From assembly GCA_018824305.1 (NCBI GenBank), contig JAHJGM010000028.1, positions 1 through 37,720 on the forward strand: DNA of 37,720 nt, written 5' to 3'. The notes beneath the pieces were generated by a model that saw nothing but the letters and a program-made list of their open reading frames with translations, did no database searches and was not told the DNA's origin. The stretch's first letter is position 1, and every line of letters starts with the position of its first letter. The position numbers were made by a program, and so were the translations under genes. The stretch comes from a bacterium. GTDB taxonomy: Bacteria; Campylobacterota; Campylobacteria; Campylobacterales; Sulfurimonadaceae. Of this stretch, positions 27,888 to 30,374 are shown in pieces.

Positions 27888-28131
27888 AGTTCTGTCTTTC
27901 CTTACATGTAAGGTATCCCCCTCGTTCCCAATCTTCAGATGTGGAATGCATACTCCAACAAAAGCAATTAGTAAAGCCTTTCCCTTCATACTTTTTTGCG
28001 GAGAAAAAAGTACATAGAACTTCATTCATCAAAATTTATAAACTTTTTAGTTACTATTTAAAACAGTGTTTTTTTATGAATTTTAAATCTTTACATGTAG
28101 AACAAAGAAAGCAAATGAAAGAGGTGGTGTA
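27888..28131. other. Repeat-rich intergenic stretch
   Basis: No convincing gene. Contents in order: the 14-base palindrome at 27900; an imperfect REP-like hairpin at about 27923-27948 with CGTTCCC and GGAATG arms; a perfect stem TACTTTTTT/AAAAAAGTA at 27989-28012 with loop GCGGAG; a near-copy of the palindrome at 28091-28100; and GAGGTGGT as the ribosome site for the next gene. Open frames on both strands exist here but carry no recognisable domain. Confidence 0.6.
27902..27911. repeat. Exact copy of dispersed palindrome after moeA
   Basis: Here the symmetry extends to fourteen bases, CCTTACATGTAAGG (27900-27913), the longest in the window. It begins 13 bases after the moeA stop. Confidence 0.92.
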
Positions 28132-28941
28132 ATGAAAAAGATAATAATTCTAGCTGTTTTTATTAGCAGTTTATTTGGTATGGATAATTCTAAAGTTGGT
28201 TTTTCAGAACTTGCAAAACACTACATCAGTATTGCAAAAGAAGCAGACAAAGTGGCGATAGGTAACCAGCGAATAGGGCATACTATTTATGGTCCTTATG
28301 AACTTGAACACAATGCGACTTTGCGAAAAGAGTTTGAAACAGCCAAAGCAAAAGAGGGGGATTTTTGTAAAGAGTTTTTTAATGATCTTTTGGCATTAAA
28401 AAACATCGAAGTTATTCCGCCTGTTGTTCGTAATGTGGATTACAATAATACCACGCTCACAAAAGAGATGGGAGCCTGCCATAAAATGGGGATGGATATT
28501 GAATTCCTTAATACAATTCCAGCCCAAACAGAACCTCATTATCCTACCAAGTTTTCCCTTTGGAAAACACACATTTTAAATCCTAAAAAAGAGAATCTTC
28601 TTTTTATGCAATCGTATGCTGCTAAAACAAATTACTATCCAATGATATATGTGCTAGACAAAGGTCTTTGCAAACAAGCTATATCAAAACAAAATTTCAA
28701 TTTTAAATATGATAAGCAGTTAGTTTATGAAGCGCAAGTTATTGGTTCTTTTAATAATTGGGAGTTTCAACTTATACGTTATAAAGGAAATGAATATTTT
28801 ATAGAAATAGCTGATCATGGAAATGCGGGTAATTATAAGTACCGTCATATACGAATATGGTTATATGGTGACAATACAGAGTGGAGAGTTGAAAAACCAG
28901 AATGTGCTAAAGATTTTTATAAATATATAGGAGAAAAATAA
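28132..28941 (+). CDS. Unrecognised exported protein
   Basis: 269 residues with a short signal peptide (about 1-16, MKKIIILAVFISSLFG). The mature part is mixed alpha/beta with four cysteines (near CKEFF, GACHK, GLCKQ, PECAK), so two disulfides are possible. It ends EWRVEKPECAKDFYKYIGEK. I recognise no family. Strong ribosome site GAGGTGG. Its base composition is poorer in G and C than the genes on either side and it sits between palindrome copies, which suggests later acquisition. It has a signal peptide, so the periplasm is the likely location. Confidence 0.8.
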   Translation: MKKIIILAVFISSLFGMDNSKVGFSELAKHYISIAKEADKVAIGNQRIGHTIYGPYELEHNATLRKEFETAKAKEGDFCKEFFNDLLALKNIEVIPPVVRNVDYNNTTLTKEMGACHKMGMDIEFLNTIPAQTEPHYPTKFSLWKTHILNPKKENLLFMQSYAAKTNYYPMIYVLDKGLCKQAISKQNFNFKYDKQLVYEAQVIGSFNNWEFQLIRYKGNEYFIEIADHGNAGNYKYRHIRIWLYGDNTEWRVEKPECAKDFYKYIGEK

Positions 28942-29030
28942 TGTCATTACAACCACACAGCAAGTACGCAAGCCGTACCGATTATTTTTCCTCGTTAAAG
29001 CACAACAGAGAGTCGAAAACTTGCATGTAA
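28941..29030 (+). CDS. Possible 29-residue peptide, coupled to previous gene
   Basis: The ATG overlaps the previous stop (TAATG), and an AGGAGA site lies six bases upstream, which is better than most genes here. The frame runs 29 codons, basic and serine-rich (SLQPHSKYASRTDYFSSLK), and ends TGC ATG TAA inside a near-copy of the palindrome. It could be a real small protein, a remnant of a longer gene, or chance. Confidence 0.35.
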   Translation: MSLQPHSKYASRTDYFSSLKHNRESKTCM

Positions 29031-29047
29031 AAATCTTTACATGTAAG
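29016..29047 (-). terminator. Hairpin from two palindrome copies, ending the MFS gene
   Basis: CTTGCATGTAAA (29020-29031) and TTTACATGTAAG (29036-29047) pair over twelve positions with one G-T and a four-base loop. Read on the minus strand the stem is followed by TTTT (29019-29016), eight bases after the MFS stop, so it may be an intrinsic terminator with a short T tract. Confidence 0.55.
29037..29046. repeat. Exact copy of dispersed palindrome before the MFS stop
   Basis: Intergenic copy that forms one arm of the hairpin, next to the TTGCATGTAA variant at 29021-29030. Confidence 0.9.
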
Positions 29048-29054
29048 AAGAAGA

Positions 29055-30374
29055 TTATTTAAGAATCTTACCCTCTATTTCCTCTTTAGAAAGATGTTCA
29101 CTCACATACTTCACGATAACAAGATGTTCCGTCTCATTGATGTACCACTCTGCGATATGCTCATGCTCAAGCGCATGTAATTTGTCCATATCTACATGTT
29201 CTTGCGGGACATAAAGATGAGAGTGTTTTGTAGGGTTTTGAAGTTTCAGCGTCCATAAAAGCCAAAGAAGCGCGATGCCCGCCGCACTTAATCCTAACAC
29301 CTCACGGTTTGAAAAGTCTAAGAAAACACCCGCTGTCGTACCGCCGACAAAGGTCATAAAATACGCAAATGAGTTGGCGATGCCAAGTGCCGCACCTTTT
29401 TGATGTACTTTGGCAAACTTGGATATCATCGATTGCACAAGCGGTTCCATCATGTTAAACGCGATAAAGAAGCTTACTACCCCTACGACAAATAATACAC
29501 TTGAAGATGTCAGACCCATGAGTAAAAACGATGCGATAAAAAGCACGATAGAGATCAGAAATATCTGCTTTGGTTTGTTGTGTTTTTCGCCAAATACTGC
29601 AGCAGGTCCCATCGCGACAAGTCCCAGTATCATGGCAGGAACGTAGGCCATCCAAAGATCGGCTTTTTCCCAGCTAAACGCATCGCTTGTCAGGATGATA
29701 GGGATAATGACAAATGCCATGGTCATGAGACCTTTTTGCATCCCGTTGATGATGATCATGCTTAAAAGGTTAGGGTCTTTTAGGATATCGGCAGTTTTTG
29801 TTTTGTTGTGGTAGATATGCTTTATCTTTGGAGGGGTAGGGACTTTGGTAAAAAGAAGGATCATTGCAAGAACTGCAAGAACTGCTGTTATCCAAAAAAG
29901 AGTTTCAACGCCGAAATGTGCGCCGATAACAGGACCAAGACCCATAGCAAGAGCAAAACTAAGAGCGATCGTTCCGCCCATCATAGCCATCGCTTTACCG
30001 CGTACTTCCTCTTCGACAAGGTCGCTTATCATCGCCGTGATGACCGAACCTATGGCTCCTGCACCCTGCAAGAAACGTCCAAGCATCAGCGTGTAGATAT
30101 CCGTACTTACAGCCGAGATGACAGAACCGATCAAGAAGATGATAAGACCCACAAGAATGGTGGGTTTGCGTCCTATCTTATCGCTCATGGAACCAAACGG
30201 GACTTGAAAGATGGCTTGGGTTAGAGCATAACCACCCACGATGATACCGACAAGCAGAGGTGTAGCACCGTTAAGTGTCATTGCATAGACTGAGAGAACC
30301 GGAAGAACTAAAAAAAGACCTAGAAAACGAAGTGATAATATTCCTGAGAGAGGAAGTACCTTTTTGAGCATCAA
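29055..30374 (-). CDS. Major facilitator superfamily transporter
   Basis: 439 residues with twelve predicted helices. The loop 2-3 motif is GSMSDKIGRKPTILVG, and DLVEEEVRGKAMAMMGG follows later, as in drug:proton antiporter families (DHA1). A cytoplasmic C-terminal tail of about 60 charged residues (from about 378) follows the last helix. Substrate unknown; multidrug or small-metabolite efflux is a reasonable guess. It is divergent from rdgB across an inverted repeat. Confidence 0.92.
   Translation of the reverse strand: MMLKKVLPLSGILSLRFLGLFLVLPVLSVYAMTLNGATPLLVGIIVGGYALTQAIFQVPFGSMSDKIGRKPTILVGLIIFLIGSVISAVSTDIYTLMLGRFLQGAGAIGSVITAMISDLVEEEVRGKAMAMMGGTIALSFALAMGLGPVIGAHFGVETLFWITAVLAVLAMILLFTKVPTPPKIKHIYHNKTKTADILKDPNLLSMIIINGMQKGLMTMAFVIIPIILTSDAFSWEKADLWMAYVPAMILGLVAMGPAAVFGEKHNKPKQIFLISIVLFIASFLLMGLTSSSVLFVVGVVSFFIAFNMMEPLVQSMISKFAKVHQKGAALGIANSFAYFMTFVGGTTAGVFLDFSNREVLGLSAAGIALLWLLWTLKLQNPTKHSHLYVPQEHVDMDKLHALEHEHIAEWYINETEHLVIVKYVSEHLSKEEIEGKILK

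What the first reader, a model, noticed from the sequence alone, without database searches (positions are those of the whole stretch)
27888..29054. Motif-dense accessory island between moeA and the MFS gene
Seen: four motif copies or near-copies (27902, 28091, 29021, 29037) within about 1.15 kb, two hairpin repeats, one exported protein with no recognised family and AT-rich composition, and a 29-codon frame. This is the highest density in the window. Inference: an acquired segment bordered by the repeats, or a place where repeat copies accumulate.
Basis: partly seen in the sequence, partly recalled or inferred. Interest (0 to 1): 0.6.

Follow-up and report, generated by a model that had tools for sequence, protein, structure and literature searches.

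The report
Orphan antidote gene for secreted lysozyme
A small piece of DNA found in only one of the compared Sulfurimonas-like genomes carries what is most likely a leftover 'antidote' gene, whose relatives sit directly in front of genes for secreted wall-cutting (lysozyme) weapons; the eye-catching repeats around it are a word scattered hundreds of times over the whole genome, not the ends of a mobile element.

Summary
The features are real. The 1.16-kb segment (27899-29055) is a strain-specific insertion between moeA and an MFS gene. Four congeners have near-empty junctions; two others carry different genes there.

The "exported protein of no family" is distantly homologous to proteins encoded directly upstream of secreted phage-lysozyme effectors in other Campylobacterota (BLASTP 1e-21 and 1e-12). 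Its 5' leader recurs in the same genome on a contig that is a tandem array of [exported protein]-[RTX-lysozyme] pairs. It ends in GGAGAAAAATAATG, the ribosome site plus overlapping start that precedes effectors. The 29-codon frame is therefore most likely the truncated start of a lost effector; this rests on position, since its sequence match is not significant. The closest congener has a parallel array with 24- and 43-codon effector stubs.

Best reading: an orphan immunity (lysozyme-inhibitor-like) cassette left after its effector was deleted. Inhibition itself is untested. Interest moderate; the palindrome deserves separate study.

The parts
27899..29055 (+). strain-specific insertion between moeA and the MFS gene
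   Evidence: blastn homology to G006/G003 stops at 27898/27900 and resumes at 29056/29083; near-empty junctions in G001, G002, G005, G007
27901..27912 (.). CTTACATGTAAG copy 3 nt inside the left edge; one of about 380 genome-wide
27990..28012 (+). hairpin ACTTTTTTGCGGAGAAAAAAGTA, tail of a dispersed repeat also on contigs C25 and C30 and in the G003 insert
28062..28131 (+). cassette leader: ACAGTGTTTTTTTATGAA tract, TTACATGTAG (28091), A-rich stretch, GAGGTGG ribosome-binding site; shared with contigs C18 (two copies) and C25 and with the G006 array
28132..28941 (+). orphan immunity-like exported protein, 269 aa, relative of proteins encoded directly upstream of secreted phage-lysozyme effectors
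   Evidence: BLASTP E=1e-21 to L053:418-1401 and 1e-12 to L055:2427-3296; profile A2
28930..28943 (+). GGAG...TAATG: ribosome-binding site plus start codon overlapping the stop, translational coupling as at intact immunity-effector junctions
   Evidence: C18 junctions; other genera; 4 of 392 long ORFs in a control sample have it
28941..29030 (+). 29-codon frame, probable truncated start of the lost effector gene
   Evidence: position; sequence match to effector starts not significant
29020..29047 (.). two palindrome copies forming a 12-bp-stem hairpin between convergent genes, at the point where the effector frame ends; possible transcription terminator

Best explanation
The island is a decayed effector-immunity cassette acquired at a variable intergenic junction. 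Its surviving gene encodes an exported immunity protein that most likely acts in the periplasm by binding and blocking a lysozyme-like (T4-lysozyme-type) peptidoglycan hydrolase. The cognate effector, a secreted lysozyme probably with an RTX or VWA tail and probably exported by a type I system, was encoded directly downstream with an overlapping start codon and has been deleted after about 26 codons. The cell keeps protection against that effector when neighbours deliver it, or the gene is simply decaying. Shown: strain-specific insertion; homology to proteins encoded upstream of lysozyme effectors; a leader shared with an effector array in the same genome; preserved coupling signal. Inferred: inhibition of lysozyme, periplasmic site, effector loss rather than never present, delivery by type I secretion.
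For: Leader homology led to contig C18, which holds tandem exported-protein/RTX-lysozyme pairs. Searching those effectors in the phylum gave loci whose upstream genes are clear relatives of the orphan. Effectors: Phage_lysozyme PF00959 up to 5e-11, RTX PF00353, VWA. One upstream protein in the set has a sub-threshold match to the lysozyme inhibitor domain LprI (E 0.003). The orphan's end GGAGAAAAATAATG matches intact pairs; the signature is at 4 of 392 control gene ends. Parallels: the G006 array with the same leader and stubs of 24 and 43 codons, the latter scoring 12.6 bits to the effector-start profile with 0 of 2000 shuffles; immunity-like genes followed by broken effector starts in G245 and G374; an effector cut by transposase genes with its upstream gene intact in G365. 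A complete TolC-HlyB-HlyD operon is in this genome. A low-confidence two-sequence model places the lysozyme inhibitor PliI among its top structural neighbours (Z 6.0, 100-103 of 122-123 residues). Literature: immunity genes usually lie upstream of antibacterial T4SS effectors (PMC6536674), and a T4SS immunity protein with a PliI-like topology inhibits a peptidoglycan glycohydrolase effector (PMC10933484).
Against: The 29-codon stub is not significantly similar to effector starts (1.1 bits; 210 of 2000 shuffles equal or better), and a phylum-wide search gave only chance-level hits. PliI Z 6.0 is middling, from a model of mean pLDDT 55. No member of the family has been assayed. Adjacency to effectors was the route of discovery for several profile members, so the profile hits are not an independent count. 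The orphan could have a general envelope role.
Confidence: 0.72

Rival explanations
1. A mobile element or transposable segment whose ends are the CTTACATGTAAG palindromes moved into the moeA-MFS junction.
For: Motif copies lie 3 and 9 nt inside the two edges of the insertion.
Against: 380 copies genome-wide, mostly in coding sequence. Empty sites have no motif; inserts in G003 and G006 at the same site are not bordered by it. No recombinase or transposase ORF in the segment.
Confidence: 0.06
2. A free-standing exported protein (general lysozyme inhibitor or envelope protein) that never had its own effector; the 29-codon frame is chance.
For: The stub's sequence is not significantly effector-like; no effector in the island.
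Against: The best relatives are encoded directly upstream of lysozyme effectors. The GGAG-TAATG coupling signal is intact. Same leader as the effector array.
Confidence: 0.17
3. DNA taken up by transformation because it carries many copies of an uptake-like palindrome; the density reflects selection at uptake, whatever the cargo.
For: The motif is highly iterated in this genus and in three other genera of the family; highest local density in the sample; the island is foreign.
Against: The other inserts at the same site have no or one copy. The density is within genome-wide expectation for one or two windows. No uptake data.
Confidence: 0.1

Closest known systems
Orphan immunity genes of T6SS effector systems (Vibrio cholerae arrays, PMC5361080; Serratia Rhs, PMC10539506)
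   Same: Immunity gene retained after the effector is lost or displaced; lineage-specific; arrays of unrelated immunity genes
   Different: Here the effectors are RTX/VWA lysozymes not seen in a T6SS cluster, the immunity gene precedes the effector, and a shared leader carries the palindrome
X-Tfe/X-Tfi pairs of antibacterial T4SS (XAC2609/XAC2610; PMC6536674, PMC10933484)
   Same: Immunity gene upstream of a peptidoglycan-glycosidase effector; immunity inhibits a glycosidase; PliI-like fold weakly suggested here
   Different: Those effectors carry an XVIPCD recruitment domain, not looked for here; X-Tfis have periplasmic lipoprotein forms, the orphan has no evident lipobox; no direct sequence comparison was made
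LprI / PliI lysozyme inhibitors
   Same: Exported small proteins against lysozyme; weak LprI match in one upstream protein of the set (E 0.003); PliI among top structural neighbours
   Different: The orphan itself has no Pfam match; structural match is middling

Membership tests
Orphan immunity gene of a secreted lysozyme effector family | homology to a protein encoded next to an effector | tested here: met
   BLASTP 1e-21 and 1e-12 to proteins directly upstream of lysozyme effectors
Orphan immunity gene of a secreted lysozyme effector family | no intact cognate effector adjacent | tested here: met
   29-codon frame then the MFS gene
Orphan immunity gene of a secreted lysozyme effector family | remnant of an effector recognisable by sequence | tested here: inconclusive
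   1.1 bits, 210/2000 shuffles; position fits
Orphan immunity gene of a secreted lysozyme effector family | neutralises the effector | not testable with these tools
   needs biochemistry
LprI (PF07007) | Pfam domain above cut-off | tested here: not met
   no hit for the orphan even at E 10
PliI-type lysozyme inhibitor fold | PliI beta fold | tested here: inconclusive
   Z 6.0, rmsd 3.9-4.0, 100-103 residues, model pLDDT 55
Type I secreted RTX protein (the inferred partner) | RTX repeats plus a type I secretion operon in the genome | tested here: met
   for the C18 effectors and the TolC-HlyB-HlyD operon; the window's own effector is lost, so its export route is inferred
Mobile element bounded by the palindrome | one copy at the empty site, two at the filled site | tested here: not met
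   no motif in the four near-empty intergenic junctions

The most novel reading that the evidence does not exclude
Campylobacterota carry an undescribed polymorphic system of secreted RTX/VWA lysozymes with unannotated periplasmic inhibitors. In this lineage its cassettes move and recombine through a shared leader that begins with a highly iterated, uptake-sequence-like palindrome, leaving trails of orphan immunity genes with 24-43-codon effector stubs.
Probability: 0.25. Interest if true: 0.75.

Novelty: new variant of a known kind. Interest (0 to 1): 0.5.

Why it matters
It gives a testable function to an otherwise family-less exported protein and exposes a set of lysozyme effector-immunity pairs in Campylobacterota that Pfam does not recognise on the immunity side. 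The searches made of the open literature did not turn up a description. It also shows that local clusters of a highly iterated palindrome should not be read as element borders without an empty-site test.

Tried and rejected
Palindromes as element ends (empty-site test failed). Phage or plasmid origin (no hit to the orphan or the segment). Direct relatives in the GTDB species genomes by conserved peptides (none). Solved relatives by sequence (none significant). Single-sequence fold (pLDDT 40.6, useless). Foldseek gave no match below E 0.5. Stub search across 397 genomes: chance-level hits only; the best (G235), on inspection, is not preceded by an immunity-like gene. Stubs against Pfam: nothing. 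The palindrome in the literature: no paper describing it as a bacterial repeat. The first pairwise stub match (1 of 2000 shuffles against C18 effector 2) was dropped as support because it was the best of three post hoc comparisons and failed the profile test.

Full report
WHAT WAS CLAIMED.

OBSERVATION. All elements are present at the stated places. The window is contig C33 of a 2.41-Mb, 71-contig genome, in the same family as a genome whose contigs match those of Sulfurimonas sp. CG01_land. moeA carries MoeA_N and MoCF_biosynth, the right-hand gene is MFS_1, and the 269-aa ORF has no Pfam hit.

THE MOTIF. TTACATGTAA occurs 380 times in this genome against 6 for the reversed control. It occurs 48 to 756 times in the other seven genus members, 354 to 1061 times in three other genera of the family (G009, G011, G012), and 0 to 6 times in every other genome examined. 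In 235 kb it is the commonest 10-mer together with its overlap TACATGTAAG, 38 observed against 0.26 expected from an order-3 Markov model; 26 of the 38 copies are in coding DNA, though the roughly 6% of non-coding DNA holds the other 12. Some copies are conserved in G006 at about 80% DNA identity. This is a highly iterated palindrome comparable in style to HIP1 or to uptake sequences (comparison from general knowledge and PMC1939737; not a membership claim). Four near-copies in 1150 bp is the sample's maximum, but about two such windows are expected in the genome.

THE SITE. In G001, G002, G007 and G005 the moeA-MFS junction is only about 16 to 100 bp and holds no motif between the genes. In the closest relative G006 it holds a small membrane-protein-like gene, and in G003 a 1.5-kb AT-rich insert including a macro-domain protein. 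Homology to G006 and G003 breaks at 27898/27900 and resumes at 29056/29083. The orphan is in none of 40 relatives. The palindromes at 27902 and 29037 do sit at the edges, but the proposed empty site with one copy does not exist in the four near-empty junctions.

THE LEADER LEADS TO THE FUNCTION. DNA upstream of the orphan (27989-28148) recurs in the same genome on C25 and twice on C18. C18 is a 7.5-kb contig made of tandem pairs: an exported protein, then, at an overlapping TAATG preceded by GGAG, a protein with a lysozyme-like front and RTX repeats. Sulfurimonas sp. CG01_land has two such pairs, and G365 has one in which transposase genes interrupt the effector while the upstream gene is intact, with an ABC transporter of type I kind nearby (transporter type judged by eye).

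THE ORPHAN IS A MEMBER OF A FAMILY FOUND IN FRONT OF LYSOZYME EFFECTORS. Profile search with the C18 effectors in 397 Campylobacterota genomes gave further lysozyme effectors. Reading their upstream neighbours revealed relatives of the orphan: BLASTP E=1e-21 to the Campylobacter sp. protein (L053/L044) and 1e-12 to the G414 protein. Two proteins from G367/G374 align over the conserved block, but the one compared pairwise was not significant. Their partners carry Phage_lysozyme (up to 5e-11), RTX and VWA domains. One upstream protein in the set has a sub-threshold LprI (lysozyme inhibitor) match. This route is not circular for the orphan itself: it was reached from a shared DNA leader, and the homology was tested afterwards. 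The later profile search is partly circular because its rows came from effector neighbours; its new strong hits, in genus g71, are immunity-like genes without an intact effector behind them (two with broken starts, one itself interrupted), like the window.

THE STUB. The orphan ends in GGAGAAAAATAATG, so a start codon overlaps its stop, as in C18; among 392 long ORFs of a control sample only 4 show this. The 29-codon frame ends at the palindrome pair. Its sequence does not match a profile of effector starts (1.1 bits, 210 of 2000 shuffles, 292 of 5498 random frames), so the claim that it is the effector's start rests on position and on parallels. The best parallel is G006 near 2.013 Mb: the only other genus member with the leader pattern, where one exported gene is followed by a 24-codon frame MATRIGVFFDGTGNNK... 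(resembling the start of DUF2235/Tle1 lipases, from memory; no Pfam hit) and the next by a 43-codon frame that scores 12.6 bits to the lysozyme-effector start profile with no shuffle of 2000 as good. The start of that array is 81% identical to the start of C18.

STRUCTURE. A two-sequence AlphaFold model (pLDDT 55, pTM 0.61) has no Foldseek match below E 0.5, but in the second look PliI, a periplasmic inhibitor of i-type lysozyme, is tied among the best (Z 6.0, 100-103 residues of about 122). This is middling and could be chance; it is noted because it agrees with the genomic context.

MECHANISM. Most likely: an exported inhibitor that blocks a lysozyme-type effector delivered by competitors, kept after the cognate effector was deleted. 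Orphan immunity genes are known from T6SS (PMC5361080, PMC10539506), and upstream immunity to peptidoglycan glycosidases from T4SS (PMC6536674, PMC10933484). The present genome has a TolC-HlyB-HlyD operon (HlyB over its curated cut-off, the other two judged from sequence and position), compatible with type I export of the RTX effectors, but delivery is untested. The hairpin of two palindromes between the convergent genes (z -3.9) may now serve as a terminator; this is inference.

VERDICT. 'Acquired segment' is right; 'bordered by the repeats' as a mechanism is not supported. The island is best read as an orphan immunity cassette.

Noticed in passing
whole genome; window 3831, 6635, 11862, 13054, 15397, 21991, 27902, 29037, 32775: Highly iterated palindrome CTTACATGTAAG (380 exact TTACATGTAA in this genome, up to 1061 in another genus of the family, near absent elsewhere), mostly coding but several-fold enriched in non-coding DNA, sometimes in hairpin pairs 14-19 nt apart; HIP1- or uptake-sequence-like and not found described in the literature searched.
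   Followed up: partly
L128 (G006:C1:2004001-2018000), around 2013014: Array of immunity-like exported genes with truncated effector starts of 24 codons (MATRIGVFFDGTGNNK..., DUF2235/Tle1-like from memory) and 43 codons (lysozyme-like).
   Followed up: partly
L038 (G000:C18): Tandem exported-protein/RTX-lysozyme pairs; the second effector's 3' end is fused in frame to a cassette leader, suggesting recombination at the leader.
   Followed up: partly
L037:508-941 and L039:1606-2038 (contigs C25, C30); window 27990-28012: A dispersed intergenic repeat of about 430 bp (81% identical between C25 and C30) ending in the hairpin ACTTTTTTGCGGAGAAAAAAGTA; only its tail is in the window, and the hairpin is also in the G003 insert at the same junction.
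   Followed up: partly
L035 (G003:C1:2064523-2066055): A different AT-rich insert at the same moeA-MFS junction with a macro-domain protein and two further small genes; possibly a defence or toxin-antitoxin-like module.
   Followed up: no
L067:3800-5352 (G365): RTX-lysozyme effector interrupted after about 94 codons by IS3-like transposase genes (judged by eye) while the upstream immunity-like gene is intact.
   Followed up: no
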